Shown here piece by piece: positions 8,833-43,704 of a DNA stretch of 64,000 nucleotides. The DNA is taken from contig MOEB01000025.1 in the NCBI GenBank assembly GCA_001939945.1, forward strand, positions 1 through 64,000, in the 5' to 3' direction. This DNA is from Aerophototrophica crusticola. Its GTDB lineage: Bacteria > Pseudomonadota > Alphaproteobacteria > Azospirillales > Azospirillaceae. The translations under genes were made by a program, and so were the position numbers. The number at the start of each line of letters is the position of its first letter. The stretch's first letter is position 1. Under the pieces are notes generated by a model. That model saw nothing but the letters and a program-made list of their open reading frames with translations, searched no databases and had not been told where the DNA came from.

Positions 8833-8900
8833 CGCACGCCGACACAGGCTCCGCGGCTTGGCTGAAAGGCGCATAGGGTTCCGCGGCGGCGGTCGCCGCC
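8833..8900. repeat. Multi-hairpin repeat, degenerate copy
   Basis: This fragment keeps the GCGGCTTGGCT linker (8854-8863) and the fourth hairpin GGCGGC-GGTC-GCCGCC (8885-8900) of the family described at 24365-24500. The hairpins in between are eroded and the outer ones are absent. It lies between convergent genes. Confidence 0.55.
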
Positions 8901-8924
8901 GGGGCACCTGAAGCCGGGCGCGTC

Positions 8925-9116
8925 CTAACCCTCGCCCTCCGTCTTGGTGGCCTCGGCCGGTTTCTGGTCCTTCGCCCGGGCGGGGCGGCCACGGCCATAC
9001 TTGTAGACGATGGTCTCCGACCCGCCAGGCGGGTGCTTCGTGACGGACCCGCCCTTGGCCAGGAACGCGGCCGTCATCTCCTCCAGCTTGCGCCGGTCGT
9101 CGGTCTTGTCGCTCAC
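8925..9116 (-). CDS. Small basic conserved-type protein of unknown function
   Basis: A 63-residue hydrophilic protein starting at GTG 9116, which is preceded by a good AAAGGAG ribosome site. It has a short charged helix (SDKTDDRRKLEEMTAAFLAKGG), then SVTKHPPGGSETIVYKYGRG with the look of a small beta hairpin, then a Lys/Glu-rich tail. No family is recognised. It is divergent from the creatininase-family gene. Codon use and the ribosome site support a real gene. Confidence 0.6.
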   Translation of the reverse strand: MSDKTDDRRKLEEMTAAFLAKGGSVTKHPPGGSETIVYKYGRGRPARAKDQKPAEATKTEGEG

Positions 9117-9251
9117 GGGCGCTCCTTTGCTGTGCGAGGGGCAAGAGCCTAGACCATGCGGCAGGGCCGTGCCAACCCTCACCATCCGCCAAGGTTCGAC
9201 TCCGCGGCCAGACCGGCTATATGGGGTGGAAACCCTGGGAAAGCGACAGAG

Positions 9252-10001
9252 ATGCAACTGCAGTTGATGACCTGGCCCGATGTGCAGGCCTATCTCGGAC
9301 GGCGGACCGACATCATCATCCCCATCGGCTCCACCGAGCAGCACGGCCCCACCGGCCTGGTGGGCACCGACGCGCTGACGGCGGAGGCCGTGGCCCGCGG
9401 GTTGGGGGAGGCGGTGGGCGCCATCGTGGGCCCGACCCTGTCGGTGGGCATGGCGCACCACCACCTGGCCTTCACCGGCACCATCACCCTGCGGCCCACC
9501 ACCCTGATCGCCCTAGTGAAGGATGTGGTGGCGTCGCTGCGGCGGCACGGCTTCCGCCAGGTGCTGTTCGTCAACGGCCATGGCGGCAACATCGCCACGG
9601 TGAACGTGGCCTTCCAGGAGCTCTATGCGGAGGCATCCCTGGCGGGGGAGGGGGCGGGGGTGCGCTGCGCCCTGGTGAACTGGTGGGACGGCAGCCGCGT
9701 GCCCGCCCTCTGCCGGGAGTTCTATGCCGGCCAGGATGGCAGCCACGCCACCGCCAGCGAGATCGCCGTCACCTGGGCCCTGTTCCCGGAGACGGCGCGG
9801 GAGGGCACGGCGCATGAGCCGCCGGTGGCCCCCAGCGGCAAGGGCTGGACCGACGCCGGCGAGTACCGCCGCAACTACCCGGACGGCCGCATCGGCAGCA
9901 ACCCGGGCCTGGCCACCATCGAGCAGGGCGGGCGCCTGCTGGCCGCGGCGGTGGAGGACATGGCGGAGAAGCACGCGGCGTTCCTGAAGGCGGGGGAGTA
10001 G
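9252..10001 (+). CDS. Creatininase-family amidohydrolase
   Basis: A 249-residue protein of the creatininase superfamily. Metal-binding motifs are visible in order: PIGSTEQHGPTG (residues about 23-34), GTDAL, SVGMAHHHLAFTGTITL, VNGHGGN near 115, and HATASEIAVTW near 165. The fold uses two divalent metals to open cyclic amides. Relatives act on creatinine, on a riboflavin/F420 precursor, or on mycofactocin peptide, so the substrate is open. There is no pathway neighbour to decide. The ATG at 9252 follows GCGACAGAG. A longer frame starting at 9156 has no ribosome site. Confidence 0.8.
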   Translation: MQLQLMTWPDVQAYLGRRTDIIIPIGSTEQHGPTGLVGTDALTAEAVARGLGEAVGAIVGPTLSVGMAHHHLAFTGTITLRPTTLIALVKDVVASLRRHGFRQVLFVNGHGGNIATVNVAFQELYAEASLAGEGAGVRCALVNWWDGSRVPALCREFYAGQDGSHATASEIAVTWALFPETAREGTAHEPPVAPSGKGWTDAGEYRRNYPDGRIGSNPGLATIEQGGRLLAAAVEDMAEKHAAFLKAGE

Positions 10002-10201
10002 GCCGGGTCCGTTCCCCGGGCCGCGCACGCATAATTCTATTCGCGCGCGGCACGGCGGCGGGATTGCCATGCCGGCGGTTGCAGCATAGGATAACCCCAT
10101 CGCGCCAGTGCAAAAGCGCCGGCTTGGGATGGGGTTCAAAATGAACGCGACGCCCAGGCGGGAGACCGCCCCCCTGGCCGCTCCCGTGCGGGGAGGCGGC
10201 C

Positions 10202-11401
10202 ATGCGTCTTGAGCTGCTTAGCAAGTCGGCCATCGGCAAGCTGTTTGCCGTGACCGAGCGGGTGAGCGCGCAGCGCCCCGACTGGTGGCGTGCGACGCCG
10301 CTGGACACCGGCAAAGACGATTACCAGACCTCTGCCGTCATCGTGGAGCTGTCCAAGGCGGCGAAGGTGCGTGTCGGTTCCGGGGGCGCGGCGGATGGGG
10401 TCCTGTCGCTCCCGGGAGGCCAATCCAACCGGTCCCTGTCCTCGTCGGCCATGCAGTTGGATGGGGCGACGGGCGACTTGCTGTCGGTCAGTTCCAGTGG
10501 GACGCTGTTTGGGCATCGCTCCAACTATGCCGTCAGCAAGTTCAGGGGCCAGGCCACGGGAGAGGTCACCTTGTCCGCCGCCGGCGTGGGCGGGGGTGCC
10601 ACGGCGTTCGCCAGGGCCACCGTGACCTCCGGGTCCGAGATGACGGTTCAGTCCGACGGGGGCGTCAGCAATGGCGGCTACCCCGACCGCCAAGCCACCT
10701 GGGCGTCGGTGGGCATCCAGACCGGTGCATCGGCCGACGTGGTCGGCGTGACCCTGGGCAACAACCTCGCCACGGCGGGGTCGGGTGTCGTGAGCAAGTC
10801 CGTCGCCAGCATAGACACGGGCAATGGCGGCGACACGGTCAACGTCGACATGCGCATGGCCCAGGATGGGGAAGCCCGCATCTGGACGGGCGACGGCGTC
10901 GATACCGTCACGATCAACCGCTCGGCCTACGGGGGCTTGGTCGGGGTCTCCACCGGGGCCGGCGACGACGTGATCCGCTTCACCGGCGGGCGGGAGGTGA
11001 CGCGGCCCTTGCCCGCGGACGCGAACAAGGCCGATCCTGCCGACTGGGATACCTGGATCGACGCAGGCGACGGCGATGACCGGATCGAGCTGGCGGCCGG
11101 CAACTACGGCGTCCGCCTGGGCTTCAACGGCGGCCATGACACCATCGACCTGGGCAAGGCGGGGGAGGCGGGGACCGTCCTGACCATCAGCACCAACTTC
11201 TACAACGACCCCCACCTGCGGGTGGAGCGGGACGGCAACAGCCTGAGGATCATCACCCAGGCCACCAGCAGCGTCACCATCACCAACATCGGGGCGGAGG
11301 ACCGGATCATGCTGGACAACGGCCCCCATGGCGGCCGCACCTGGCTGTATGGCGCCCCGCCGGCCGACCCGCGCGGGGCGACGACGGACGTCCAGGCCTG
11401 A
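10202..11401 (+). CDS. Asp/Gly-rich RTX-like protein of unknown function
   Basis: A 399-residue protein without a signal peptide. The N-terminal half is Ser/Gly/Ala-rich and beta-like. Residues about 205-320 carry five loose nonapeptide-like units, GNGGDTVNV, TGDGVDTVTI, TGAGDDVIRF, AGDGDDRIEL and NGGHDTIDL, spaced 20-35 residues apart. This is reminiscent of RTX calcium-binding repeats but not arranged in a tight beta roll. RTX proteins are usually exported by type I systems, and none lies here. The start has GGGAGG five bases upstream. A 23-codon frame from ATG 10141 overlaps it and might be a leader. Confidence 0.55.
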   Translation: MRLELLSKSAIGKLFAVTERVSAQRPDWWRATPLDTGKDDYQTSAVIVELSKAAKVRVGSGGAADGVLSLPGGQSNRSLSSSAMQLDGATGDLLSVSSSGTLFGHRSNYAVSKFRGQATGEVTLSAAGVGGGATAFARATVTSGSEMTVQSDGGVSNGGYPDRQATWASVGIQTGASADVVGVTLGNNLATAGSGVVSKSVASIDTGNGGDTVNVDMRMAQDGEARIWTGDGVDTVTINRSAYGGLVGVSTGAGDDVIRFTGGREVTRPLPADANKADPADWDTWIDAGDGDDRIELAAGNYGVRLGFNGGHDTIDLGKAGEAGTVLTISTNFYNDPHLRVERDGNSLRIITQATSSVTITNIGAEDRIMLDNGPHGGRTWLYGAPPADPRGATTDVQA

Positions 11402-11481
11402 TCGCGTCCCCGGGGGCCTCGCCCGCGCCGTTTCCCGCGCCAGCTTGTTGGGGCAGCAGAGTTCCAGCCAGGAGCGCCCCC

Positions 11482-11748
11482 ATGGACAGTTTCGCCGCCA
11501 TCGTCCTCGTCTGCCTGTCCTCGGTGGAGGTGCCGGCCTGCAACCAGGAGAACGCGCTGGACGTGCGCTCCGTGGAGGTGGCGAACGAGATGTCCTGCCT
11601 CTATGGCTGGCAAGAGGTGATCGCCCGCACGCCGCGGGCGGAGGACGTGGGCAAGGACACCTACGTCAAGACCTTGTGCGAGCGCATCAAGGGCCGGGAC
11701 AAGGCCGCCAAGCCGCCCCCGGCGGATGCGGCCCGCGACAAGGGGTAG
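11482..11748 (+). CDS. Small cysteine-containing hypothetical protein
   Basis: An 88-residue protein. The first 20 residues are mildly hydrophobic (MDSFAAIVLVCLSSVEVPAC). The middle has four cysteines in all (C10, C20, C39, C65), and the tail is Lys/Pro-rich. The cysteine spacing would suit disulfides in the periplasm if the N-terminus acts as a weak export signal, but this is not certain. No family is recognised. It is convergent with the GST gene, and a multi-hairpin repeat fills the space between their stops. Confidence 0.5.
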   Translation: MDSFAAIVLVCLSSVEVPACNQENALDVRSVEVANEMSCLYGWQEVIARTPRAEDVGKDTYVKTLCERIKGRDKAAKPPPADAARDKG

Positions 11749-11763
11749 GGCCTATACCCGCCG

Positions 11764-11923
11764 CCGTTGATCGTGACCGATCAACGGCCCCTCAGGCGCC
11801 CCCGGGCTCGGGGGCCGGGGCAGGCTCGCGCCGCCATCCGGCGGCTTGGCTCACGCGGGCATGGGCCCGCGGGCCGGCAGTCGGCAGCCTCCAAGCGCAT
11901 GAGTGAACAACCCATGCGCTTGG
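11764..11923. repeat. Multi-hairpin repeat, copy A (complete, with insert)
   Basis: Hairpin 1 is CCGTTGATCG-TGAC-CGATCAACGG (11764-11787). An insert hairpin CCCCGGGCTCGGGG follows. Then comes hairpin 2 GCCGCC-ATCC-GGCGGC, the TTGGCT linker, hairpin 3 CGCGGGC-ATGG-GCCCGCG, a decayed hairpin 4, and hairpin 5 CCAAGCGCATG ... CATGCGCTTGG (11891-11923). It fills the gap between the stop codons of two convergent genes almost exactly, so it may serve both as terminator. Confidence 0.8.
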
Positions 11924-11925
11924 TA

Positions 11926-12561
11926 TTACTCACCCGCCTGGTCGAACTGGTAGGGGCCGCCCCGCTCGATGGCCCGACGATAGCCGGGGCGGGCCTGGAT
12001 GGTCTTCAGGAACCGTTCCAGGTTGGGGAACCGGGCCAGCCCCACCATGCGGGCCGCCGCCTCCACCGGGAAGCTCATCTGGATGTCGGCGGCGGTCAGA
12101 TCCTCACCCGCGAACCAGGGGTAGCGGGCCAGGGCGCCTTCCATGTAGGACAGGACGGCCGCGATTTCCCCGTCGATGCGGGGCTTCAGCGGTGCGGCGG
12201 CGTCACCCAGGCGGCCGGTATAGAGCTTCAGCAGGATCGGCAGCATGGCCGACCCCTCCGCGAAATGCATCCAGTGCAGGTAGCGCACCGCCTCCGCCGA
12301 GCCCTCCGGCGGGACCAGCCGGCCATGGCCGTGGCGCTGCACCAGGTACTCAACGATGGCGCCGGATTCGGCCAGCACCAGCTCCCCCTCCCGGATCACG
12401 GGGGACTTGCCCAGGGGATGGATGGCCTTCAGCTCCGCCGGGGCGAAGTTGGTCTTGGGGTCGCGCTCATAGCGGATGACCTTGTAGTCCATGCCCAATT
12501 CCTCCAGCAGCCACAGCACGCGCTGCGAGCGGGAATTGTTCAGGTGATGGACTTCGATCAT
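11926..12561 (-). CDS. Glutathione S-transferase family protein
   Basis: A 211-residue protein. The N-terminal thioredoxin-like domain begins MIEVHHLNNSRSQRVLWLLEELG, with a serine at the usual catalytic position. It continues with HPLGKSPVI, carrying the cis-proline, and LAESGAIVEYL, which binds the glutamyl part of glutathione. The helical C-terminal domain contains FAGEDLTAADIQMSFPVE, the N-capping motif. The family conjugates or reduces using glutathione in the cytoplasm. The start at 12561 is preferred because the fold begins there. Substrate is unknown. Confidence 0.85.
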   Translation of the reverse strand: MIEVHHLNNSRSQRVLWLLEELGMDYKVIRYERDPKTNFAPAELKAIHPLGKSPVIREGELVLAESGAIVEYLVQRHGHGRLVPPEGSAEAVRYLHWMHFAEGSAMLPILLKLYTGRLGDAAAPLKPRIDGEIAAVLSYMEGALARYPWFAGEDLTAADIQMSFPVEAAARMVGLARFPNLERFLKTIQARPGYRRAIERGGPYQFDQAGE

Positions 12562-12671
12562 CGTCGCCTCCCCGGCGTCTACCCCTTCGTTCTGGTGGGA
12601 GTATAAGGCCAACAGCCGAGGGCGGAACCCCATCCGCCAAGCATGGCCGTCATGCCAGGACCCTTTGTGGA

Positions 12672-12708
12672 CACTCAAGCGCCCGCATCCGCGGGCCGGC
12701 GGTCAATC
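12672..12708. repeat. Multi-hairpin repeat, truncated copy
   Basis: CTCAAGCGCCCGCATCCGCG and the following GGCCGGCGGTC match the lead-in, hairpin 2 (CCCGC-ATCC-GCGGG) and the first arm of hairpin 4 of the family. The linker and hairpin 3 are deleted. It lies between two leftward genes, just after the MFS gene's stop. Confidence 0.5.
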
Positions 12709-14148
12709 GGCCTCCGCCGCCGCCCGGGTCTTGTCCGTGACCTCGGCGCGGGTCCCGGCATGGCCGCTCACCTCCGCGCCCGCGTCACGGGGGAGGGAAA
12801 GGAAGGTGGGCACGGACAGCAGCGAGACCACGCCCACCGCCAGGAAGGCCGGCCAGAAGTCCGTGGCCGCCAGCTCCTCCCGCCCCGCGTTCACCCGCGC
12901 CAGATGCAGCACCATGGCGCCCACGCCGACGCCCATCGTCAGCGACATCTGTTGGGCCACGGCGGAGAAGCTGGTGGCCCGGCTCATCAGCTCCTTCGGC
13001 ATGTCGGCGAAGGCCAGGGTGTTCAGCGCGGTGAACTGGAGGGAGCGGAAAAAGCCGCTGGCCAGCAGCACCGACAGCATCAGCGCTGCCGGCGTGGTGG
13101 GGCCGAACAGGCCGAAGCTGGCCAGGAAACAGGCGCTGATCGCCCCGTTCAGCAGCAGCACCGGCTTGAAGCCGAATCGCCGCAGCACCCGGCTGGCCGC
13201 CAGCTTCATGCCGATGGCACCCAGGGCACCCGCGAAGGTGATCAGGCCGGACGACAGGGCCGACAGGCCGAACCCCGCCTGGAGCATGAGGGGCAGCAGG
13301 AAGGGCTGGGCCCCGATGCCGATGCGGAACAGGCTGCCGCCCAGGACGGAGGTGCTAAACGTGCGCACCCGCATGGGTGCCCATTGCAGGATCGGGTGCG
13401 CCGCGCGGCGGGCATGGAAGACATAGGCGGCCAGGGCCAAGGCCCCGCCGCCCAGCAGGGCCGGCACCGTCCAGGCGGGCAGGCCGCCGCGGCCCAGGCT
13501 CTCGAACCCGAACATCAGGCCGGACAGGGCGGCCCCCAGCATGATGAAGCCCACCAGGTCCAATGGCGGGGTCGCCGGCTCCCGCACGTCGGGGATGTAG
13601 CGGCTGGCCAGGAAGAAGCCCAGGAGGCCGATGGGCAGGTTGATGTAGAAGATCCAGCGCCAACTGGCGTAGGTGACGATGAAGCCGCCCAGCGGCGGCC
13701 CCAGCACCGGCCCCACCAGGGCCGGCACGGTCAGCCAGGCCATGGCGCCCACCAGCTCCGCCTTGGGGATGGAGCGCAGCAGGACCAGGCGGCCCACCGG
13801 CGTCATCATCGCCCCGCCCATGCCCTGCACGATGCGGGCGCCCACCAGCTCCGGCAGGCTCTGCGCCAGGCCGCACAGGGCGGAGCCCAGGGTGAAGACC
13901 AGGATGGCGCTGCGGAACACGGCCCTCGCCCCGAACCGGTCCGCCATCCAGCCGGACAGGGGGATGAAGACCGCCAGGCTCAGCAGGTAGGCGGTGATGG
14001 CCGTGGACAGGTGCAGCGGGTCGGTGCCCAGGCTGCGCGCCATGGTCGGCAGCGCGGTGGCGATCACCGTGCTGTCCAGATTCTCCATGAACAGGGCGCA
14101 GGCCACGATCAGCGGTACGATCCGGCTGCGCCCCGGGGCGGCGGCCAT
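12703..14148 (-). CDS. MFS drug efflux transporter, DHA2 (14-TMS) type
   Basis: A 481-residue inner-membrane transporter with about 14 hydrophobic segments. DHA2 features include MENLDSTVIATALPTMARSLG at the start (motif D1), SGWMADRFGARAVF (motif A) and ARIVQGMGGAMMTPVGRL (motif B-like), followed by GPVLGPPLGGFIVTYASWRWIFYINLP (motif C). Such pumps export drugs or dyes using the proton gradient. No regulator or membrane-fusion partner is adjacent, so it probably acts alone. The C-terminal tail is hydrophilic. Confidence 0.88.
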   Translation of the reverse strand: MAAAPGRSRIVPLIVACALFMENLDSTVIATALPTMARSLGTDPLHLSTAITAYLLSLAVFIPLSGWMADRFGARAVFRSAILVFTLGSALCGLAQSLPELVGARIVQGMGGAMMTPVGRLVLLRSIPKAELVGAMAWLTVPALVGPVLGPPLGGFIVTYASWRWIFYINLPIGLLGFFLASRYIPDVREPATPPLDLVGFIMLGAALSGLMFGFESLGRGGLPAWTVPALLGGGALALAAYVFHARRAAHPILQWAPMRVRTFSTSVLGGSLFRIGIGAQPFLLPLMLQAGFGLSALSSGLITFAGALGAIGMKLAASRVLRRFGFKPVLLLNGAISACFLASFGLFGPTTPAALMLSVLLASGFFRSLQFTALNTLAFADMPKELMSRATSFSAVAQQMSLTMGVGVGAMVLHLARVNAGREELAATDFWPAFLAVGVVSLLSVPTFLSLPRDAGAEVSGHAGTRAEVTDKTRAAAEAD

Positions 14149-14310
14149 GGGCAGGCTCCGGTTCGGGGGACGTGCCCTGATCTACAGTCGGCGGACGCGG
14201 ACCGTCAGCCCCCCACGCACAGGGCGCCCCCGCGCGGGATGCAGGACTGCCGGCCAGCCAGGGTGCCGCAGCCCCTTGGGCCTTGCCTGCCTGTCAGCCA
14301 TATAGGCCCC

Positions 14311-14655
14311 ATGCGCCGCCTGGACCCCTTGCCCCCGGACCTGCCCCGCCGCCGAGAGGAGCCGCGGGAGAGCCTGGGCCCCTGTCCCCTCTGCGGCCGG
14401 CCCATGCTGGCGGGGCCCAGCGTGGACCTGCACCATCTGGTGCCGAAGAGCGAGGGCGGGAAGCACACGGTGCCCATGCACCGGGTCTGCCACCGCAAGA
14501 TCCACGCCGAGCTGACCGAGAAGGAACTCCGCGACCGCTACAACACGGCCGAGGCCCTGCGCGAACACCCGGCCATCGCCGACTTCATCCGCTGGGTGGC
14601 CCGCAAGCCGCCGGAATTCACCAAGGCGACGTTCCGGCGGAAAAGCCGGGAATAG
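14311..14655 (+). CDS. HNH endonuclease domain protein
   Basis: A 114-residue single-domain protein. A zinc-knuckle pair CPLCGRPM (residues about 24-31) is followed by the catalytic VDLHHLVPKSEGGKHTVPM with its HH, then CHRKIHA, completing the HNH fold. Stand-alone HNH proteins of this size occur widely and may nick DNA or act in repair. No mobile element surrounds it. ATG 14311 is used. Upstream in-frame codons extend into the MFS promoter region without coding character. It is convergent with the SGNH hydrolase, five bases apart. Confidence 0.75.
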   Translation: MRRLDPLPPDLPRRREEPRESLGPCPLCGRPMLAGPSVDLHHLVPKSEGGKHTVPMHRVCHRKIHAELTEKELRDRYNTAEALREHPAIADFIRWVARKPPEFTKATFRRKSRE

Positions 14656-14660
14656 GCTGG

Positions 14661-16142
14661 TCAGACGCCGGCGAACCGCTCCACCAGCCATTCCGCCAGG
14701 CGTGTGTTGTCGTACAGCTCCGGCATCAGCTTGATGGGGTGGCTGAACAGGGTGTCGCTGGCGTTGATGGCGGTCCAGTCAAGCTTGTCCGGGTCGGCAT
14801 GGGGGACCTTTGCTGCCTGCATCACCTTCAGGAACTCCAGGGCGAGCAGCCCGTGGCCGATGGCGGAGGGGTGGACCCCGTCCAGGCTGAACAGCCCGCC
14901 GTTCAACCGCGTGCCCTTCCGGTCCACATGGTAATAGACGGTGTTGACCAGCGGCACGCCGCCATCTTCGTTGCCGGCCCGCAGCTCCGCCGGGAACGGG
15001 TAGCTGGGGTTGCCCCCGTTCCGCTTGAAGGCCGCCCGCAGCAGGGCGTCGTTGATGTCCACGATGTGCAGCCGCGGCCGGTCCAGCCTGCCGTTGGCCG
15101 CTTCCACCAGGCTGCGGATGTCCCTGTTGTAGGCGGCGATGGTCTTGTCGATGCGGTAGACTTCGTCCCGGATCAGCCGCCGGCCCGTGCGCCGGGCGAA
15201 GGACTCGTCGAACAGCACGTAGGTGTATAGCTCCGCATACTGGGCCGAGGTGCCGGGCAGCACGCCGAACGGGTCCTCCCGCCCCTCCCAGGTGCCCACG
15301 CCCTTGGCCAGGGGGGCGATGGAGACGGCGGGGACGGTGGCGACGAAAATCCGCCAGTCCTTGGCCTTGTTGTGCCGCAGGGCGGCCAGCACCTTGTCCA
15401 GCAGCAGTTCGTACTCCGCCGCGAAATGCTCGTGAGTCCACAGGTTGTAATCGTCCCGGTCCTCCACGCTGAGGTCCAGGGGCGGGACGGGGGATTGGTC
15501 GGTGCACTTGATCTTCAGGTCCAGCACGGTGCCCAGGGCGTTGTTGGAGCCCAGCCAGAGGGCCACGTTCTCCACCCCCTCATGCCTTGCATGGTGCTCC
15601 AGCCAGCCGACCTGCGACTTCCCGCCATGCACCTTGGCGCGGGACGGGTTCAGCACCGCGTGGGCGGTGCGGGCGAAACTCTTGTTCGGCAGGCCCAAGG
15701 AATTGTCGTCGATGTCCCGGTCGGAGACGATCTGGTCGACGCACCAGTCCGGCGTGACCATCCATGCGTCGCCCACGGTGAAGCCGCGGGCGGAGACGTT
15801 GGGAAAAAACTCGGTGGGCCCGGCCTGGGGCATGGCGATGTTGCCGCTGCCCCGCTCGTAATGGTCCTCCACGTCGTCCAGCATGTCCTCGATGGTCAGC
15901 AGCGCCAGGGGCCACTCGATGGGGCCGCGGATGTTGGCGCCATAGCGCCGTTCCAGCTTGCGCAGCAGCTTCTCGATGTTCAGGGGCAGGCCGCCCTTGT
16001 GCCAGGTGGGGATGGGGTAGTCCACCTCCGGGCGGAGACCCAGGACCTTGGCGACCAGGGTGGAATAGCTCAGCTCCGTCCTGGCCGCCGCCAGGGACAT
16101 GAAGCCTTGCGAGATGCTGTCGCCGATGGTGAAGAGCTTCAT
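14661..16142 (-). CDS. SGNH/GDSL-type hydrolase family protein
   Basis: A 493-residue protein that begins with the catalytic block itself, TIGDSISQGF (Ser near residue 9). WLGSNNALG near residue 198 supplies the oxyanion Asn block, and SLDGVHPSAIGH near 421-432 carries the Asp-His of the triad. The family hydrolyses esters. It has no signal peptide, so it should be cytoplasmic unless a longer start is used. It is far longer than typical 200-residue esterases, and the extra central segment (about 80-190 and 230-400) is unassigned. The substrate is unknown. Confidence 0.75.
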   Translation of the reverse strand: MKLFTIGDSISQGFMSLAAARTELSYSTLVAKVLGLRPEVDYPIPTWHKGGLPLNIEKLLRKLERRYGANIRGPIEWPLALLTIEDMLDDVEDHYERGSGNIAMPQAGPTEFFPNVSARGFTVGDAWMVTPDWCVDQIVSDRDIDDNSLGLPNKSFARTAHAVLNPSRAKVHGGKSQVGWLEHHARHEGVENVALWLGSNNALGTVLDLKIKCTDQSPVPPLDLSVEDRDDYNLWTHEHFAAEYELLLDKVLAALRHNKAKDWRIFVATVPAVSIAPLAKGVGTWEGREDPFGVLPGTSAQYAELYTYVLFDESFARRTGRRLIRDEVYRIDKTIAAYNRDIRSLVEAANGRLDRPRLHIVDINDALLRAAFKRNGGNPSYPFPAELRAGNEDGGVPLVNTVYYHVDRKGTRLNGGLFSLDGVHPSAIGHGLLALEFLKVMQAAKVPHADPDKLDWTAINASDTLFSHPIKLMPELYDNTRLAEWLVERFAGV

Positions 16143-16327
16143 GGGCGTCCCTCCCCCTGCCGGGCCGGACCATGCCGGCGGTGCCTTGCCGGGTACTGTG
16201 GACCCGGGCCGGGAAGGTCCCGGTGGCATCTTCGGGAGGTGACCCGCTTTTCCCCGGGGCACCGTGCCGGCAGCGGAACGGTCGGCGGGACGGGCGGTTG
16301 GGGCCCTTACCAGAATGGAGGAGCCCC

Positions 16328-16519
16328 ATGCCGAAGAACCCGCGCAACATCGACACCGATGACGGCATCCCCGCCAAGGCCAGCCAGGGGAATGCCCCCC
16401 ATGTGGGCGGCGACAAGGATGTCCGCCGGATCGAGTCGGAGCAGGCGGCGGAGGATCCCAAGGCCAAGGGCCGCGAGGGCCAGGCCAAGGGCAGCCATAC
16501 CCACGGCCGGGGTGGCTGA
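16328..16519 (+). CDS. Small hydrophilic, probably disordered protein
   Basis: A 63-residue protein rich in Lys, Asp, Gly and His (MPKNPRNIDTDDGIPAKAS at the start; SHTHGRGG at the end), with no hydrophobic core. A strong GGAGG ribosome site lies six bases before ATG 16328. Composition recalls small stress-related hydrophilic proteins, but no named family is recognised. It runs toward the rpsU terminator, which lies beyond its stop in the opposite orientation. Confidence 0.55.
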   Translation: MPKNPRNIDTDDGIPAKASQGNAPHVGGDKDVRRIESEQAAEDPKAKGREGQAKGSHTHGRGG

Positions 16520-16552
16520 TCGCCAAGGCCCCAAAACCGACTTTCGAATTCG

Positions 16553-16589
16553 AAAACACCAAAAGCCGCCCTGCGAAAGCGGGGCGGCT
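16553..16589 (-). terminator. Rho-independent terminator of rpsU
   Basis: Read leftward, AGCCGCCC ... GGGCGGCT forms an eight-base-pair stem followed by TTTTGGTGTTTTC. It lies about 95 bases past the rpsU stop. Confidence 0.75.
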
Positions 16590-16682
16590 CTGGCTCGTGA
16601 CGAGCGGGCCTGTCGGCGACCGTCAGGTCCTGGAATCCCGACGGGCCGGGGTAGAACCCGGCCTTTGTCGGTCGAGGGCTGG

Positions 16683-16886
16683 TTAGTAGCCCTCGCGCTC
16701 CAGACGCTTGCGCAGCAGCTTGCGGGCGCGGCGGATGGCTTCCGCCTTCTCGCGGGCGCGCTTCTCAGACGGCTTCTCGTAGTTCCGGCGCAGCTTCATC
16801 TCGCGGAAGATGCCTTCGCGCTGCATCTTCTTCTTCAGCGCGCGCAGGGCCTGATCGACGTTGTTGTCACGAACCAGTACTTGCAC
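16683..16886 (-). CDS. rpsU: 30S ribosomal protein S21
   Basis: A 67-residue, very basic protein of the S21 family ([20 protein letters not shown]; then [20 protein letters not shown]). It joins the 30S subunit platform and helps early initiation. The start is GTG 16886, as the family begins at this residue. The mRNA has a leader of about 120 bases with a strong hairpin at 16963-16997. COQ9 and def lie close by, a neighbourhood often seen in alphaproteobacteria. Confidence 0.95.
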
Positions 16887-16962
16887 GGGTCGTCACCACT
16901 CCAATCATGCGCGGCTCCGGCGAGGCCGGGGACACGCGGGTTTCATGTCACGAATGAACAAA

Positions 16963-16997
16963 GGGCAGACGCGGCCGGTAAGGACGCGCATCTGCCC
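16963..16997 (-). promoter_or_regulatory. Hairpin with U-tract in the rpsU leader
   Basis: Read leftward, GGGCAGATGCGCG ... CGCGTCTGCCC pairs and is followed by TTTGTTCATT. It lies between the predicted rpsU promoter and the gene, so it may be an attenuator or a feedback site for S21. It could instead be a leftover terminator. Confidence 0.5.
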
Positions 16998-17014
16998 GAT
17001 CCAGTCGTGTGGTG

Positions 17015-17043
17015 CTATAACACGGTGCCGAGCGCTTTGTGAA
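17015..17043 (-). promoter_or_regulatory. Predicted housekeeping promoter of rpsU
   Basis: On the minus strand TTCACA and TTATAG are separated by 17 bases, a near-consensus sigma-70 type spacing. It would give a leader of about 120 bases. The same gap must also hold the def promoter in the other direction, where GCTATAGGG near 17146 could be a -10 element. The rest of 16887-17188 shows nothing else. Confidence 0.45.
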
Positions 17044-17188
17044 GCCCTGGTGACGGCGGGAGAGTCGGATTCCGTGCACAGGGCGGTCATGCGCCGCCGT
17101 ATCGTGACTCACGACCAGATAGGGGAACCAACGGCGGAATGCTGCTATAGGGCATCCATCTGGAAAAGGTGAAGGGGCAGGGAACAGC

Positions 17189-17734
17189 ATGGCCATCCTG
17201 AAGATCGCCCGCATGGGTCACCCGGTGCTGCGCCGGCGGGCGGAGCCGGTGGAGCTGCCCATCCCCGCCGTGGTGCGGCAGCTTGCCATGGACATGATCG
17301 AGACTATGGTGGACGCGCCGGGCATCGGGCTGGCGGCGCCCCAGGTGCATGTAGGTTGGCGCATCATCGTCTTCCGCGTGCCGGGGGAGCGGGCCACCGG
17401 CCAGCCGGGCGACACGGCCCTGGAGCCGCAGGTGCTGATCAATCCGGAGCTTGAGCCCCTGTCGGATGAGACGGTGCTGGGCTGGGAGGGCTGCCTGTCC
17501 ATCCCCGGCCTGCGCGGGGTGGTGCCGCGCTGGAACCGTATCCGCTACCGCGGCGTGGGGCTGGACGGGAACCTGGTGGAGCGGGAGGCGACGGGCACCC
17601 ACGCCCGCGTGATCCAGCATGAGATGGACCATCTGGACGGCGTGCTGTACCTGGACCGCATGCCGGACATGGCCAAGCTGAGCTTCACCGAGGAGATGAA
17701 GTACTTCGGGCCGGACGTGCTCACCCCACGGTGA
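17189..17734 (+). CDS. def: Peptide deformylase
   Basis: A 181-residue metal enzyme that removes the formyl group from nascent N-termini. All three family motifs are intact: GIGLAAPQ (about 46-53), EGCLSIPG (about 99-106, with the metal-binding Cys) and HEMDHLDG (about 144-151, with two metal His and the catalytic Glu). The insert GERATGQPGDTALEPQ is somewhat longer than in the E. coli enzyme. It is monocistronic or heads a short unit with COQ9 93 bases downstream. Confidence 0.93.
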   Translation: MAILKIARMGHPVLRRRAEPVELPIPAVVRQLAMDMIETMVDAPGIGLAAPQVHVGWRIIVFRVPGERATGQPGDTALEPQVLINPELEPLSDETVLGWEGCLSIPGLRGVVPRWNRIRYRGVGLDGNLVEREATGTHARVIQHEMDHLDGVLYLDRMPDMAKLSFTEEMKYFGPDVLTPR

Positions 17735-17827
17735 GGGGGCCCCTGCGGCGCGATGAAGCCTAGCCGCGGCGGCCCGGCCGTCCCATCTTCCCGGCAACCC
17801 TTTGCAACACCAGCGGAGCCTTCCGCC

Positions 17828-18547
17828 ATGACCACCGACGCGACCCCGGATTTCGGCGACTGGCCGGAGGGTTCCTATTCCGAGGGCAGCTTCATGGACG
17901 AGCTGACCGCCCGCCGCGACGCCATCCTGGAAGCCATGCTGCCGGAGGTGGCCTTCGACGGCTGGACCCGGGCCGCCCTGCTGCGCGCCGCCGAGTCGGC
18001 CGGCTACCCCAAGGAGGAGGCGCTGGCCGCCTTCCCCGACGGCATGGCCCAGGTGGTGGAGCATTTCAGCGGTTGGGCTGACCGGAAGATGCTGGACCGG
18101 TTGGCGGAGCAGGACCTGATGGCCCTGAAGGTGCGGGAGCGGGTGACCCTGGCCGTCCGCACGCGGCTGGAGGTGCTGGGCCCGCACAAGGAGGCGGTGC
18201 GCCGCTCCGCCTCGTTCCTGGCCCTGCCGCAGGTGGCGGGGCTGGGGCCGCGCATCCTGTACCGCACGGTGGACGCCATGTGGCTGGCCGCCGGCGACAC
18301 CTCCACCGACTATAATTTCTACACCAAGCGCCTGCTGCTGGGCGGGGTGGTGGCCAGCACCACGCTTGTCTGGCTGGACGACCGCAGCGAGGGCAACGAG
18401 AAGACCTGGTCCTTCCTGGATCGCCGGATCAACGACGTGATGGCGGTGGGCAAGGGCATCGGCCAGTTGAAGAACGCCGGCAGCCTCCTCTCCAAGCTTC
18501 CGACGCCGGGGCGCCTGGCCAAACATTTCCGCGCCGGGATGCGCTGA
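17828..18547 (+). CDS. COQ9 family ubiquinone biosynthesis protein
   Basis: A 239-residue protein. After an acidic N-terminus, residues about 25-75 match the COQ9 start (RRDAILEAMLPEVAFDGWTRAALLRAAESAGYP, a TetR-like helix set). The C-terminal lipid-binding part follows (AGDTSTDYNFYTKRLLLGGVVASTTLVWLDDRSEG near 155-190). COQ9 binds quinone intermediates and delivers them to COQ7-type hydroxylases. It is restricted to mitochondria and alphaproteobacteria, which is the best taxonomic marker here. ATG 17828 has a weak ribosome site. Its transcript ends in the hairpin plus T-run at 18548. Confidence 0.9.
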   Translation: MTTDATPDFGDWPEGSYSEGSFMDELTARRDAILEAMLPEVAFDGWTRAALLRAAESAGYPKEEALAAFPDGMAQVVEHFSGWADRKMLDRLAEQDLMALKVRERVTLAVRTRLEVLGPHKEAVRRSASFLALPQVAGLGPRILYRTVDAMWLAAGDTSTDYNFYTKRLLLGGVVASTTLVWLDDRSEGNEKTWSFLDRRINDVMAVGKGIGQLKNAGSLLSKLPTPGRLAKHFRAGMR

Positions 18548-18686
18548 CCGCCCCAGGCAAGCTGGGGCGGCCAGCTTTTTCGTTCGCCTCAAGCGCCGGC
18601 GCCGCATCCGCGGCTTGGCTTGCGCGACCACGGGGTCGCGCGGCGGCAGTCGCCGCCGAAGCGTTCCCAGCGACGCTGGGAACGCT
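18548..18686. repeat. Multi-hairpin repeat, copy B, whose first hairpin is a terminator
   Basis: Hairpin 1 is CCGCCCCAG-GCAAG-CTGGGGCGG starting directly after the COQ9 stop and followed by CCAGCTTTTT, a classic Rho-independent terminator. Hairpin 2 is GCCGC-ATCC-GCGGC, then TTGGCT, hairpin 3 CGCGACC-ACGG-GGTCGCG, hairpin 4 CGGCGGC-AGTC-GCCGCCG, and hairpin 5 AGCGTTCCCAGC-GAC-GCTGGGAACGCT (18660-18686). Confidence 0.8.
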
Positions 18687-18788
18687 CTTCCTCCTAGGTG
18701 ACGGCGCGTTTGGCGGGACGCCCCTCTCCCCCTTGTGCGCCGGGCGAGCTAGGTCTATGCCGGAGATGTCGCCGCCGCCGGAGCCGCC

Positions 18789-19193
18789 ATGCGCCTGACC
18801 CTCGCCGCCTGTTTGTCCGTCGCCATCCTTGCCCCCCTCGCCGCCCCCGCCGGGGCGCAGGTACAGCCCCCGCAGCGCAAGGGGGAGTATGGCTGCCAGG
18901 TCAGCCCCGCCACGCCCTGCCGCGGCCGCGTGGACTTTGAGCAGGGCAACAGCTTCGAGTTCAAGATCGCCGGACCCGGCCAGGCCGTGTTCACCAATGA
19001 GGGCAACAAGCGCTGCACGCTGGAATACAGCGTCACCGAGTCCTCCCAGGCCTCCACCGGCAAGCAGTTGAACCTGGGCCCGGGCCAGACCCTGGCCCTG
19101 CCGGTGCGGGACAAGGCCGGGATGATCGTGCGATTCTTCAGCCGCGGCCTGGGCTCCACGGCCTGCGACCTGTCCGTCACCCTCCAGGGCTGA
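18789..19193 (+). CDS. Secreted hypothetical protein
   Basis: A 134-residue protein with a clear signal peptide (about 1-23, cleaving after AGA). The mature part begins QVQPPQRKGEYGCQVSP and contains four cysteines, which would form disulfides in the periplasm, and a predicted all-beta body. No family is recognised. The next gene, a thioredoxin-fold protein, starts 26 bases downstream and is probably co-transcribed, which hints that it may act on this or similar Cys-containing periplasmic proteins. Confidence 0.6.
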   Translation: MRLTLAACLSVAILAPLAAPAGAQVQPPQRKGEYGCQVSPATPCRGRVDFEQGNSFEFKIAGPGQAVFTNEGNKRCTLEYSVTESSQASTGKQLNLGPGQTLALPVRDKAGMIVRFFSRGLGSTACDLSVTLQG

Positions 19194-19219
19194 CGCCCGT
19201 CCGTCCAGGGAACACCGCC

Positions 19220-19735
19220 ATGCGCCGCACCCGTTTCGCCTTCCTGGCTGCCACCGCCCTGCTGCTGTCGGCCCCCACCCTGCCGGCAATGGCGGCGGGG
19301 GAGGGGCTGCCCGCTTATTCCCAGGCCTTCGACCCCGCCCGCGACCCGGCTGCTGACCTGAACGCCGCCCTGGCGGACGCCAAGGCGACCGGTCGCCACG
19401 TGCTGATCGATGTGGGCGGCGACTGGTGCATCTGGTGCAAGCTGCTGGACGGGCTGTTCGAGCAGAACGCCGAGCTGCGGACCCTGCGGGACAAGAATTT
19501 CGTCCTGCTGAAGGTGCACTACGACAAGAAGGTCAACCAGAACAAGGCCTTCCTCAGCCAGTACCCCAAGGTCGCCGGCTACCCGCATCTGTTCGTGCTG
19601 GATGCCGACGGCAAGCTGCTGCACAGCCAGGACACGGGCCAGCTGGAACTGCCGAAGGAACAGGGCAAGGGCCACGACGTAACCAAGGTGAAGGCCTTCC
19701 TGGAGGCCTGGGCCCCCAAGGGCCGCGGGGTGTGA
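19220..19735 (+). CDS. Periplasmic thioredoxin-fold protein
   Basis: A 171-residue protein with a signal peptide (about 1-25). The fold is of the thioredoxin_7 type: HVLIDVGGDWCIWCKLLDGLF puts a WCxWC active site near residues 69-73, and the cis-proline motif is AGYPHLFVLDADGK near 115-128. Proteins of this group reduce or shuffle disulfides outside the cytoplasm and receive electrons from DsbD-like membrane proteins. The downstream C-terminus is Lys-rich. It is likely to be in one operon with the preceding secreted protein. Confidence 0.8.
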   Translation: MRRTRFAFLAATALLLSAPTLPAMAAGEGLPAYSQAFDPARDPAADLNAALADAKATGRHVLIDVGGDWCIWCKLLDGLFEQNAELRTLRDKNFVLLKVHYDKKVNQNKAFLSQYPKVAGYPHLFVLDADGKLLHSQDTGQLELPKEQGKGHDVTKVKAFLEAWAPKGRGV

Positions 19736-19807
19736 GGGCTGGCAGAGGCGGGCGATCGGGCGTATCCTGCCGTTAATGGGTGGGATGCCCTGGTGCGAAG
19801 GTCGCCG

Positions 19808-20032
19808 ATGAACGCGCTTAAGGCCACGGTCGTGGATGGACGGGTCCTGTTGGAACTGCCTTTGGAGATGGCCGGCCGGCTCAACATCTCCGAGGGCGGC
19901 ATCGTCATGGCCAATGACCATGATGGGGATGTCCGCCTGACGGCAGCCCCCGACGACTTCGCCGACCTCCTCTCTGCGGCGGAGGAGGTCATGGAGGAGA
20001 ACCGTTGGGTCCTCCAGCAGCTGGCGAAATAG
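19808..20032 (+). CDS. AbrB/SpoVT-type antitoxin, partner of Doc
   Basis: A 74-residue protein with the swapped-hairpin AbrB pattern in its first 45 residues (LKATVVDGRVLLELPLEMAGRL, then GGIVMANDHDGDVRLTA). An acidic helical tail (DDFADLLSAAEEVMEEN) probably neutralises the toxin. Its TAG stop is followed directly by the toxin's ATG, the usual arrangement for translational coupling. The antitoxin likely autorepresses the operon. GTG 19793 is an alternative start five codons upstream. Confidence 0.75.
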   Translation: MNALKATVVDGRVLLELPLEMAGRLNISEGGIVMANDHDGDVRLTAAPDDFADLLSAAEEVMEENRWVLQQLAK

Positions 20033-20419
20033 ATGGCCGGGTGGAAATGGATCGGGGTGGAGTTTGCCCTGCTGATCCATGAGCGACAGATTGCCGAGCA
20101 TGGGGGTGGGTTGGGTATCCGCGACGTCGGGTTGCTTGAGGGCGCTCTGGGACGGCCCCAGATGCTACACGCCTATGGGCAGCCCGACCTGTTCGACCTC
20201 GCGGCCTGCTATGGCTGGGGATTGGCAAAGAACCATCCCTTTGTTGATGGGAACAAGCGCACGGCCTTCGTTCTCTGCCTGGCTTTTCTCCGGGCGCACG
20301 GCTTCAAGCTGACCGCGTCGCAGGATGTGCGGTACGCCATGTTCTATGGCGTGGCAGCAGGAACAGTGAGCGAGTCCGAATTGGCGAATTGGCTTCGCGA
20401 TAACTCCGTGCGGGCCTGA
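20033..20419 (+). CDS. Death-on-curing (Doc/Fic fold) toxin
   Basis: A 128-residue protein of the Doc branch of the Fido superfamily. Its active motif is HPFVDGNKRTA near residues 68-78. The lysine in place of the second glycine of AMP-transferring Fic proteins is typical for Doc, which phosphorylates elongation factor Tu and stops translation. The N-terminal ALLIHERQIAEHGGGLGIRDVGLLEGAL matches the family start. It is immediately downstream of an AbrB-like antitoxin with no gap. All catalytic residues appear present, so the toxin should be active. Confidence 0.88.
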   Translation: MAGWKWIGVEFALLIHERQIAEHGGGLGIRDVGLLEGALGRPQMLHAYGQPDLFDLAACYGWGLAKNHPFVDGNKRTAFVLCLAFLRAHGFKLTASQDVRYAMFYGVAAGTVSESELANWLRDNSVRA

Positions 20420-20515
20420 AAACGTCCTTACACCCCCGTTACATCCTGAAACTGTCACGTCACACCCCGCCTGCTACGGTCCGCGCCGAAATCCGGTTGG
20501 TCGGGAGAGCGCGTG

Positions 20516-20980: not shown

Positions 20981-20997
20981 CCCTGTTTCATGCCACT

Positions 20998-21133
20998 GGC
21001 TGTTGATCGTAACAGATCAACAGCCCCCTCAGTCGCCGGGCGGGCGCATCCGCGCCCTTGGCTCACGCGCACTCGAGTGCGCGGGCCGGCAGTTGCCGGC
21101 CGTCAGCGGCATGGGTCGATGACTCATGCCGCT
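20998..21133. repeat. Multi-hairpin repeat, copy C (complete)
   Basis: Hairpin 1 GGCTGTTGATC ... GATCAACAGCC (20998-21025), hairpin 2 GGGCGC-ATCC-GCGCCC, TTGGCT, hairpin 3 CGCGCAC-TCGA-GTGCGCG, hairpin 4 GGCCGGC-AGTT-GCCGGCC, hairpin 5 AGCGGCATG ... CATGCCGCT (21105-21133). It occupies the whole gap between the convergent ridA-like and asd genes. Confidence 0.85.
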
Positions 21134-21137
21134 TCCA

Positions 21138-22166: not shown

Positions 22167-22309
22167 AGCCAAATCCCCACATCCGATGGCCCGCGCCTTT
22201 GCGGGCGGACACGGCTTGACAAGCCGATGACAAGCCTTTGACTTATGGATGCGGGCAGGGCTTGGCAAGGAAATGCCACCCGCGCCGCACAGGCGGGAGG
22301 GATGCAGCC

Positions 22310-24321: not shown

Positions 24322-24364
24322 TGGCCCTGTGCCCGGGGGCAGCCTCAGGCGTCTGATACTGGCC

Positions 24365-24500
24365 GCCGTCGATCGTGACCGATCAACGGCTCCCTCAAGC
24401 GCCGGGCGGGCGCATCCGCGCCCTTGGCTTACGCGGGCACGTGCCCGCGGGCCGGCGGTCGCCGGCCTCCAAGCGCATGGGTCAAATCCCATGCGCTTGG
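24365..24500. repeat. Multi-hairpin repeat, copy D (best-preserved reference copy)
   Basis: Hairpin 1 GCCGTCGATCG-TGAC-CGATCAACGGC (24365-24390, one mismatch). Hairpin 2 GGGCGC-ATCC-GCGCCC (24408-24423). TTGGCT (24424-24429). Hairpin 3 CGCGGGC-ACGT-GCCCGCG (24432-24449). Hairpin 4 GGCCGGC-GGTC-GCCGGCC (24450-24467). Hairpin 5 is a 13-base-pair stem CCAAGCGCATGGG / CCCATGCGCTTGG around TCAAAT (24469-24500). It lies between convergent genes. Confidence 0.88.
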
Positions 24501-24526
24501 TATGAGCCCACCCCGGGGAACCAGGA

Positions 24527-42643: not shown

Positions 42644-42730
42644 GTCGTGTTGGCAAGGGGCGGGGGCAAGCCCGGGCAGGGCCGCCCCATCGCAACGCGG
42701 CACCTTGCCCCGGCGTTCCTTATGCTTGTT

Positions 42731-42829
42731 CCCTCAGGCGCCCCCGGCTCGGGGGCCGGGGCAGGCTCGCGCCCGCATCCGCGGCTTGGCTTACGCGACC
42801 ATGGGGTCGCGGGCCGGCAGTCGCCGGCC
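42731..42829. repeat. Multi-hairpin repeat, copy E (core only, between divergent genes)
   Basis: The core is intact with the insert hairpin CCCCCGGCTCGGGGG, hairpin 2 (CCGC-ATCC-GCGG), TTGGCT, hairpin 3 CGCGACC-ATGG-GGTCGCG and hairpin 4 GGCCGGC-AGTC-GCCGGCC. The outer hairpins 1 and 5 are missing. Unlike the other copies it lies in a divergent promoter region. Confidence 0.75.
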
Positions 42830-42905
42830 TGTTTCCTGCCCTCAGGCGTTGGGTGCCGCCGTAGGCTGTTTACGGTCCCGGCAATCATGATCTAGCTTCG
42901 GCCCC

Positions 42906-43520
42906 ATGACCCAGACCGACGACGCCCGCCGCTTCGCCCCCGCCACCCTGCGCAACCGCCAGCCCATCCTGGCCGTGCTGCGGGAGGTGCTGCCCGACAC
43001 CGGCACCGTGCTGGAGATCGCCAGCGGCAGCGGGGAGCATGCCGTCTATTTCGCGGAGGCACTGCCGGGCCTGCACTGGCAGCCCAGCGACGCCGACGCG
43101 GGAGCCAGGGCCAGTATCGTCGCCTGGACCGAAAGCCTGGGCCTGCAGAATGTCTGCTGCCCCCTGGACCTGGACGCCTCCGCCCCCGACTGGCCGGTGG
43201 CGGAGGCGGACGCGGTGGTCTGCATCAACATGATCCACATCTCCCCCTGGGCGTCGGCGGAGGGGCTGTTCGCCGGGGCCGCCCGGCTGCTGTCGCCGGG
43301 CGCGCCGCTGGTGCTCTATGGCCCGTTCAAGCGCGGTGGCGCCCACACCGCCCCGTCGAACGAGGAGTTCGATGCCGCCTTGCGCGCCCAGGACCCGCGC
43401 TGGGGCGTGCGCGACCTGGAGGTGGTGGGCGACCTTGCCGCCGCCAGCGGCTTCGTGCTGGACCGGGTGGTGGAGATGCCCGCGAACAACCTGACCGTGG
43501 TGTTCCGGAAGGCTGCGTAG
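42906..43520 (+). CDS. DUF938 SAM-dependent methyltransferase-like protein
   Basis: A 204-residue protein of the DUF938 family. It starts RRFAPATLRNRQPILAVLREVLP, has motif I as VLEIASGSGEHAVYFAEALP near residues 36-55, and WQPSDADAGARASI after it. The central VCINMIHISPWASAEGLFAGAARLL and LVLYGPFKRGGAHTAPSNEEFDA are family signatures. It should bind S-adenosylmethionine. The methylated product is unknown. It is divergent from the TerB-like gene. Confidence 0.85.
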   Translation: MTQTDDARRFAPATLRNRQPILAVLREVLPDTGTVLEIASGSGEHAVYFAEALPGLHWQPSDADAGARASIVAWTESLGLQNVCCPLDLDASAPDWPVAEADAVVCINMIHISPWASAEGLFAGAARLLSPGAPLVLYGPFKRGGAHTAPSNEEFDAALRAQDPRWGVRDLEVVGDLAAASGFVLDRVVEMPANNLTVVFRKAA

Positions 43521-43553
43521 CTGCCCTGGCCTTGGGATTACGCGGCTGGCGGT

Positions 43554-43704
43554 GCTAGACCCGTTTCCCGCAGACTGGAAACGGGTCTAGCCCTTCGTGT
43601 TCCTCACACGCCGGCGCCGCATCCGCGGCTTGGCTTACGCGGGCATGGGCCCGCGCGGCGGCAGTCGCCGCCGGAGCGTGTTTACGGGCAGCGTAAACAC
43701 GCTC
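43554..43704. repeat. Multi-hairpin repeat, copy F (complete)
   Basis: Hairpin 1 is a 15-base-pair stem GCTAGACCCGTTTCC / GGAAACGGGTCTAGC (43554-43591). Hairpin 2 GCCGC-ATCC-GCGGC, TTGGCT, hairpin 3 CGCGGGC-ATGG-GCCCGCG, hairpin 4 CGGCGGC-AGTC-GCCGCCG. Hairpin 5 is a 13-base-pair stem GAGCGTGTTTACG / CGTAAACACGCTC (43674-43704). It lies between convergent genes and touches the stop of the VOC gene. Confidence 0.88.

What the first reader, a model, noticed from the sequence alone, without database searches (positions are those of the whole stretch)
8833..43704. A family of five-hairpin intergenic elements with compensatory stem changes and exchangeable outer hairpins
Complete or nearly complete copies lie at 11764-11923, 18548-18686, 20998-21133, 24365-24500, 42731-42829 and 43554-43704, with remnants at 8833-8900 and 12672-12708. 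Each has a lead-in CTCA(A/G)xCGCC, hairpin 2 with invariant loop ATCC, an invariant TTGGCT linker, hairpin 3 built on CGCG...CGCG, and hairpin 4 with loop AGTC or GGTC. Stems differ with both sides changed together: hairpin 2 is GCCGC/GCGGC, GCCGCC/GGCGGC or GGGCGC/GCGCCC; hairpin 3 is CGCGGGC/GCCCGCG, CGCGACC/GGTCGCG or CGCGCAC/GTGCGCG; hairpin 4 is GGCCGGC/GCCGGCC or CGGCGGC/GCCGCCG. This is covariation, so structure is selected or copied as structure. It does not match any named RNA or REP family I can recall. It could be a structured RNA 3' end, a REP-like element moved by a transposase elsewhere, or a protein-binding array.
Basis: seen in the sequence. Interest (0 to 1): 0.85.

Follow-up and report, generated by a model that had tools for sequence, protein, structure and literature searches.

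The report
Mobile hairpin element at gene ends
The five-hairpin repeats are copies of a small piece of mobile DNA that has spread through Niveispirillum and related bacteria, often landing at the end of a gene without breaking it, and whose hairpins stay paired in a way that looks like DNA rather than RNA.

Summary
In detail: six copies, all on the + strand, plus two remnants. They belong to a high-copy family: 142 places at E<=1e-5 in this Niveispirillum genome (lower bound), 91 in N. cyanobacteriorum, hits in 51 of 82 Azospirillales genomes and in 1 of 32 genomes outside the family. Covariation is very strong: 96% of cells paired, 256 two-sided against 8 one-sided changes.

It is a mobile, MITE-like element. 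Of 23 copies picked by their TACCA...TGGTA-like ends, 14 have identical flanking triplets (4.1 expected). Three 146-bp copies are 100% identical at unrelated sites. One copy sits inside another. Two Azospirillum copies have empty sites in close relatives, with TGA duplicated; in one this is the mmsB stop codon.

Pairing is almost purely Watson-Crick: G.U 0.5% against 5.6% in tRNAs, and G.U no commoner than A.C. That speaks against an RNA function of settled copies. Copies crowd between convergent genes.

No Y1 (RAYT) transposase was found in this genome, and no partner transposase. Different end hairpins surround one core, so ends are exchangeable. No Rfam match; no description found in the paper searches made. 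Mobility is shown; the enzyme and the role of the core are inferred.

The parts
11755..11925 (+). copy 1: type A ends (TACCC...TTGGTA), core with extra GC-rich module; flanks CTA / TTA; between convergent genes, the right flank TTA being the stop codon (reverse strand) of the called minus-strand gene
18548..18687 (+). copy 2: core 18588-18658; first hairpin 18548-18570 is terminator-like; right hairpin follows the core; outer limits approximate
20991..21137 (+). copy 3: ends TGCCA...TTCCA, flanked by TCA / TCA; the right TCA is the stop codon of the called minus-strand gene 21138-22166; convergent gap
24357..24502 (+). copy 4: type A, 146 bp, ends TACTG...TTGGTA, flanked by TGA / TGA; convergent gap
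42733..42829 (+). copy 5: core with extra GC-rich module, no clear outer hairpins
43555..43706 (+). copy 6: type B ends (CTAGACCC...ACGCTCTA); the right end supplies the TAG stop of the called minus-strand gene 43704-44087; outer limits approximate
8833..8900 (+). remnant: linker and H4 kept, H3 lost; below the model threshold
12674..12712 (+). remnant: lead-in and H2 fused to a broken H4; below the model threshold

Best explanation
Copies of a non-autonomous, MITE-like mobile DNA element of the Azospirillaceae. A conserved, strand-specific core (CTCA..CGCC lead, H2 with loop ATCC, TTGGCT linker, H3, H4 with loop RGTC) is carried between two outer hairpins with short inverted ends. In type A the ends are TACCA...TGGTA and insertion goes mostly into C-TNA-G sites, duplicating TNA; the site is often a stop codon, so the gene keeps its stop. 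Shown: mobility, duplication, placement, covariation, near absence of G.U. Inferred: a transposase acting in trans (not found), loss of harmful insertions leaving copies mainly at gene 3' ends, and a need for the folded core as DNA while the element is moved or copied.
For: Identical flanking triplets in 14 of 23 type-A copies, 4.1 expected, 0 of 100,000 shuffles as high; three 100% identical 146-bp copies at unrelated flanks; nested copy at C263:64562; empty site at mmsB of A. argentinense Az39, 4 of 4 fetched relatives empty, with the TGA stop duplicated; second empty site in A. brasilense. Convergent gaps 57, divergent 19, of 165 intergenic copies, against 93 and 313 of 904 gaps without a copy. 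G.U 11 of 2016 and 6 of 1122 paired cells against 37 of 659 in tRNAs; G.U 17 and A.C 23. One of 116 own copies has a held G005 copy between related genes, and that one is in opposite orientation.
Against: No partner transposase or longer element with these ends was found. No direct duplication could be shown for type B ends or for copies without clear ends. Nine of 23 type-A copies lack identical triplets. The strand-specific conserved loops and linkers, and strong RNA folds, are also what a structured RNA would show. The covariation alignments were fitted to the model.
Confidence: 0.8

Rival explanations
1. A structured RNA with a host function (3'-end stability, processing, small RNA), spread by duplication and kept by selection on RNA folding.
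For: Strong two-sided covariation; conserved loops and linkers on one strand only, e.g. TTGGCT in 105 of 112 own copies; copies lie mostly at gene 3' ends; strong RNA folds.
Against: G.U 17 against A.C 23 in stems and ten times fewer G.U than tRNAs; positions hardly shared with G005; recent insertion with target duplication; no Rfam family.
Confidence: 0.12
2. The two-sided stem changes are made by mutation, not selection: template switching between the arms copies one arm onto the other, so stems stay perfect without any need for structure.
For: Near absence of one-sided intermediates (8 one-sided against 256 two-sided cells; 6 against 211 by my addition of the table); the mechanism is described in PMC8794818 (abstract and opening read). 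It fits together with a mobile element.
Against: Loops and linkers stay conserved while stems vary, and the core length and order stay fixed across genera, which mutation alone does not explain.
Confidence: 0.3
3. REP-type element moved as single-stranded DNA by a RAYT/Y1 transposase.
For: High-copy intergenic palindromes with conserved unpaired bases; orientation agrees with local GC skew in 109 of 171 copies (P 0.0004) and with the leading strand in 42 of 64 G005 copies (P 0.017).
Against: No PF01797 hit in this genome although the search rings in 5 of 14 control genomes; 1 weak hit among 11 genus genomes, whose 3.4-kb locus shows no TTGGCT and one AGCCAA without an inspected core. A 3-bp target duplication is not expected of this family (recalled).
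Confidence: 0.05
4. A host-useful barrier: the hairpins stop or insulate transcription between convergent genes, and copies are kept for that.
For: Excess between convergent genes; very stable hairpins; a terminator-like first hairpin at 18548.
Against: The excess is also expected if insertions elsewhere are lost and target sites are stop codons. Copies are hardly kept at the same place in G005. The consensus scan of 8000-25000 found a terminator-like site at only one of the four copies there.
Confidence: 0.15

Closest known systems
Bacterial MITEs (PMC10969869, passages seen)
   Same: Short, non-coding, inverted ends, target duplication, many copies, stable hairpins
   Different: GC-rich rather than AT-rich; a conserved three-hairpin core inside; several kinds of ends around one core; no parent IS found
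Pneumococcal BOX elements (PMC3049150, passages seen)
   Same: Modular: outer modules around an inner module that can be repeated; different outer modules around the same inner one are reported in S. suis
   Different: No sequence relation was tested; here the inner part is a fixed three-hairpin core with strict Watson-Crick covariation
GTAG- and CGTC-tagged REPs (PMC3733652, passages and one section read)
   Same: High-copy palindromes with unpaired tags; CGTC REPs predominate in Alphaproteobacteria, are listed for A. lipoferum, and lack a dedicated transposase
   Different: By eye no CGTC/GTAG foot, no AT-starting 8-9 bp stem, no CCA tail; five hairpins in about 146 bp; 3-bp target duplication
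IS1031 group of the IS5 family (recalled, no call)
   Same: 3-bp TNA target duplication
   Different: No related ends or transposase was found here

Membership tests
Bacterial MITE | Target site duplication | tested here: met
   14 of 23 type-A copies, 4.1 expected; empty site with duplicated TGA. Type B not shown
Bacterial MITE | Terminal inverted repeats | tested here: met
   TACCA...TGGTA, short, in type A; TAGACC...GCTCTA in type B; many copies have no clear ends
Bacterial MITE | Parent IS whose transposase moves it | tested here: inconclusive
   none found in the held DNA; only PF01609 and PF01797 were searched in the whole own genome
REP/RAYT | RAYT (Y1) transposase gene in the genome, flanked by the repeat | tested here: not met
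   0 of 1 own genome, 1 weak hit in 11 genus genomes
CGTC-tagged REP | CGTC foot, 8-9 bp stem starting with AT, CCA tail | tested here: not met
   definition compared by eye with the copies
Structured RNA family (Rfam) | Match to a known family | tested here: not met
   0 matches at gathering score in the window; only a tRNA in five loci, four of them with copies; best sub-threshold match for one copy P15, 18.9 of 70 bits, E 0.043
Structured RNA family (Rfam) | Stems that tolerate G.U more than A.C | tested here: not met
   G.U 17, A.C 23 of 3077 cells; tRNA G.U 37 of 659; A.C was not counted in tRNAs
IS1031/IS5-type MITE | Ends matching an IS5-family transposase gene | tested here: inconclusive
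   the one DDE_Tnp_1 IS found has unrelated ends; the draft has 328 contigs, so IS may be missing

The most novel reading that the evidence does not exclude
The core is the working part of an undescribed transposition system: a strand-specific three-hairpin DNA module that an enzyme recognises in folded form, that can be fitted with different terminal hairpins, and that goes into stop codons (C-TNA-G) so that insertion leaves genes intact.
Probability: 0.2. Interest if true: 0.8.

Novelty: new variant of a known kind. Interest (0 to 1): 0.55.

Why it matters
The family holds about 150 places in this genome and is widespread in the Azospirillaceae; no description of it turned up in the paper searches made (open-licence papers only). 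It is a clear case where strong covariation need not mean RNA function: counting G.U against A.C separates the two. It also shows how a mobile element can be tolerated, by duplicating or supplying a stop codon. What moves it is open and can be tested in laboratory Azospirillum strains.

Tried and rejected
RAYT/REP: rejected. Partner IS: no element of 500-3500 bp with such ends and 14 of 22 matching end bases in the held window, G000 and G005 stretches; five weak candidates with 7-8 of 16, none convincing; the three called genes inside one of them were not identified because the family scan failed. The single DDE_Tnp_1 hit lies in an IS with ends GGYCTGTGGACATTC at a CTAR-like site. Rfam: nothing at gathering score (apart from a tRNA). 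Phage records: no match for one copy. Replication-polarity signal (KOPS-like): runs of one strand exist (40 of 63 adjacent G005 pairs concordant, P 0.018; own 62 of 100, P 0.012; neighbouring genes 35 of 63) but too weak for that. Exact empty sites for own-genome copies: six joined sites were searched in 11 genus genomes; flank matches in other genomes are 69-88% identical and none spans a junction as a clean empty site. In one search some loci run in the other direction than I had assumed, so it shows only that four of them have no element behind the stop. Target duplication in other genomes: 9 of 14 (P 0.003), but three of the 14 are own-genome loci and at least three left ends look miscalled, so I rest on the 23.

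Limits: gene calls come from my own simple script, not from curated annotation; 15 of 180 copies overlap a called gene and were dropped from the placement count. Of 149 own places, 116 lay in fetched stretches; of 91 G005 matches, the 64 on C1 were used. The first H2 pair was dropped from the G.U/A.C count because six-bp stems are misaligned there. Of seven relatives with a two-piece match at the Az39 site I fetched four. In one search the one two-sided match has an extra called gene on one side in G005, and 57% identity on the other.

Full report
What was checked. A covariance model of the core (H2-H4, model R1) finds 148 matches at E<=1 in the window's own genome, 142 of them at E<=1e-5; only 150 candidates were scored, so this is a lower bound. 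A simple pattern finds 50 and 92 matches on the two strands against 0 and 1 for the reversed pattern (some places are counted twice). The two remnants fall below the model's threshold but can be read in the sequence.

Which organism and how wide. The genome is a draft of 6.06 Mb in 328 contigs. Relatives in its genus have contigs whose lengths equal records of Niveispirillum irakense DSM 11586 and N. cyanobacteriorum TH16. The element is found in 11 of 11 genus genomes, 35 of 47 genomes of the family and 1 of 32 outside it. A second search hit 51 of 82 genomes of the order, all 82 being of the same family. Eighteen plasmid records, 17 of Azospirillum and one of Niveispirillum, match an Azospirillum copy.

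Anatomy. The shared core is CTCA-NN-CGCCGG, H2 (mostly loop ATCC), TTGGCT, H3 (tetraloop mostly AYGN) and H4 (mostly loop RGTC; 7 of 64 G005 copies have GGGCGCTCA(A/G)CG instead). Around it lie outer hairpins of several kinds. Type A has ends TACCA...TGGTA and is 144-148 bp in 21 of 23 copies. Type B has ends TAGACC...GCTCTA. Many other copies have a core soon after a stop codon and an outer hairpin of their own sequence. Some, such as the window copies at 11791 and 42733, carry an extra GC-rich module before H2. Tandem cores occur 80 to 109 nt apart. So 'exchangeable outer hairpins' is right for the whole family.

Covariation. On 112 distinct own copies, 96.3% of cells are paired, 16 of 19 pairs change on both sides in some copy, 256 cells change on both sides and 8 on one side. 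Sliding the partners gives 31-50% paired and covariation scores of 0.012-0.058 against 0.338. G005 gives the same picture (65 copies, 96.6% paired). By mutual information with average-product correction, structure pairs hold ranks 1-5, 7, 9 and 13 of 2485 column pairs in own copies and ranks 1-7 and 10 of 2346 in G005; some structure pairs hardly vary and rank low, down to 938 and 926. The alignments were fitted to the model, which leans towards the structure. R-scape itself could not be run.

DNA-like, not RNA-like. Only 11 of 2016 paired cells (own) and 6 of 1122 (G005) are G.U, against 37 of 659 in 30 distinct tRNAs found in the loci held at that time; Fisher P 7e-17. If settled copies were held by selection on RNA, G.U should outnumber A.C, since only G.U pairs on the + strand. 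The counts are 17 G.U and 23 A.C, P 0.43 for a difference (the first H2 pair was left out). Settled copies thus decay evenly with respect to strand. The stems were near perfect when copied. Whether that reflects selection on folded DNA during movement, or template switching between arms (PMC8794818, abstract and opening seen), is open. Conserved loops and linkers, e.g. TTGGCT in 105 of 112 own copies and 52 of 65 in G005, fit recognition of one strand in folded form; this is inference, and a structured RNA would show the same.

Mobility. Twenty-three own copies were picked by their two ends, without regard to flanks. Fourteen have identical flanking triplets; 4.1 are expected by shuffling, and 0 of 100,000 shuffles reached 14. 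The flanks are TNA in 19 of 23 on each side, preceded by C in 17 and followed by G in 14. One pair of flanks is reverse-complementary, so this is a direct repeat and not part of the inverted ends. Three copies are 100% identical over 146 bp at sites with unrelated flanks. At C263:64562 a copy sits inside another copy's CCCTCA, with TCA on the left and TCG on the right. In the window, the copies at 20991-21137 (TCA/TCA) and 24357-24502 (TGA/TGA) show the duplication and the one at 11755-11925 (CTA/TTA) does not.

Empty sites. In A. argentinense Az39 the element follows mmsB as GGCG-TGA-[156 nt]-TGA-AAGGG. A. argentinense MTCC4035 (98.8% identical over the matched part), A. brasilense 2020WEIHUA_K and MTCC4038 read GGCG-TGA-AAGGG; Azospirillum sp. 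TSH58 is empty too, with a small local repeat. The duplicated TGA is the stop codon of mmsB. Seven relatives have a two-piece match there; four were fetched. A second copy, in A. brasilense MTCC4038 p1 and shortened on one side, is flanked by TGA and TGA and has an empty site in TSH58.

Where it sits. Of 180 copies in held loci, 15 overlap a called gene. Of the other 165, 57 lie between convergent genes, 89 between genes in tandem and 19 between divergent genes. Gaps of 100 nt or more without a copy in the same loci are 93 convergent, 498 tandem and 313 divergent; convergent against divergent, odds ratio 10, P 6e-18. Of the 23 type-A copies, 13 have an end flush with a stop codon. In type B the element's own end reads TAG and is the called stop on the left in 7 and on the right in 7 own copies by distance. 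In the window, four copies are between convergent and two between divergent called genes. Positions are hardly shared with G005: one of 116 own copies has related genes on both sides of a held G005 copy, in opposite orientation; other pairs share genes on one side only.

What moves it. No Y1 (RAYT) protein was found in the own genome and one weak hit in 11 genus genomes. The only DDE_Tnp_1 hit is in an IS with unrelated ends. No longer element with these ends was found in the held DNA. The features listed under end-hairpin matches in plasmid records include no transposase, though flanks were not examined for all. A 3-bp TNA duplication recalls the IS1031 group of the IS5 family; that is recalled, not tested. 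The enzyme remains unknown.

Comparison. It works like a MITE and meets the two testable features, duplication and inverted ends (type A); a parent IS is unresolved. Its modular make-up resembles streptococcal BOX elements (PMC3049150, passages seen). It is not a GTAG or CGTC REP as defined in PMC3733652 (passages and one section), and RAYTs as described in PMC2817692 (passages) are missing. Seven paper searches gave no description of it; they cover open-licence papers only.

Verdict. A real, widespread and recently mobile DNA element with unusually strict Watson-Crick hairpins: new as a family, a variant of a known kind. Interest is moderate. Mobility is shown by sequence, the covariation has an instructive DNA-level reading, and the mobilising system is open.

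Noticed in passing
window (6 of 6 copies on +); G000:C1 (12 of 13 listed places on -); G005:C1: Runs of same-strand copies: adjacent copies agree in strand in 40 of 63 (G005 C1, P 0.018) and 62 of 100 (own, P 0.012) cases, and orientation agrees with local GC skew in 109 of 171. Modest, cause unknown.
   Followed up: partly
L206 near 10347 and L223 near 17377: Type B outer hairpins (GACCCGTTTCC...GGAAACGGGTC) occur without a core in the bases shown, so end hairpins may exist on their own.
   Followed up: no
G002:C20:12166, 12274, 12382 and 19087, 19196; G000:C57:51242, 51322; G000:C285:28511, 28593: Tandem cores at 80-109 nt spacing, reminiscent of repeated inner modules.
   Followed up: no
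window 18588-18614 and other copies: The invariant lead CGCCGG and linker TTGGCT could pair as GCC/GGC with two G.U wobbles below H2 in RNA folds; they hardly vary, so covariation cannot test it.
   Followed up: no
L276 (G000:C272:145-540): The only DDE_Tnp_1 transposase hit of the own genome, in an IS with ends GGCCTGTGGACATTC / GAATGTCCACAGACC.
   Followed up: partly
G057 (a genome outside the family): One model match at E 4.6e-5, the only one among 32 genomes outside the family; chance or transfer not decided.
   Followed up: no
L201 near 15454 (G000:C35:26086): A type-A copy with an enlarged H3 loop, 186 bp in all, showing inserts inside the core.
   Followed up: no
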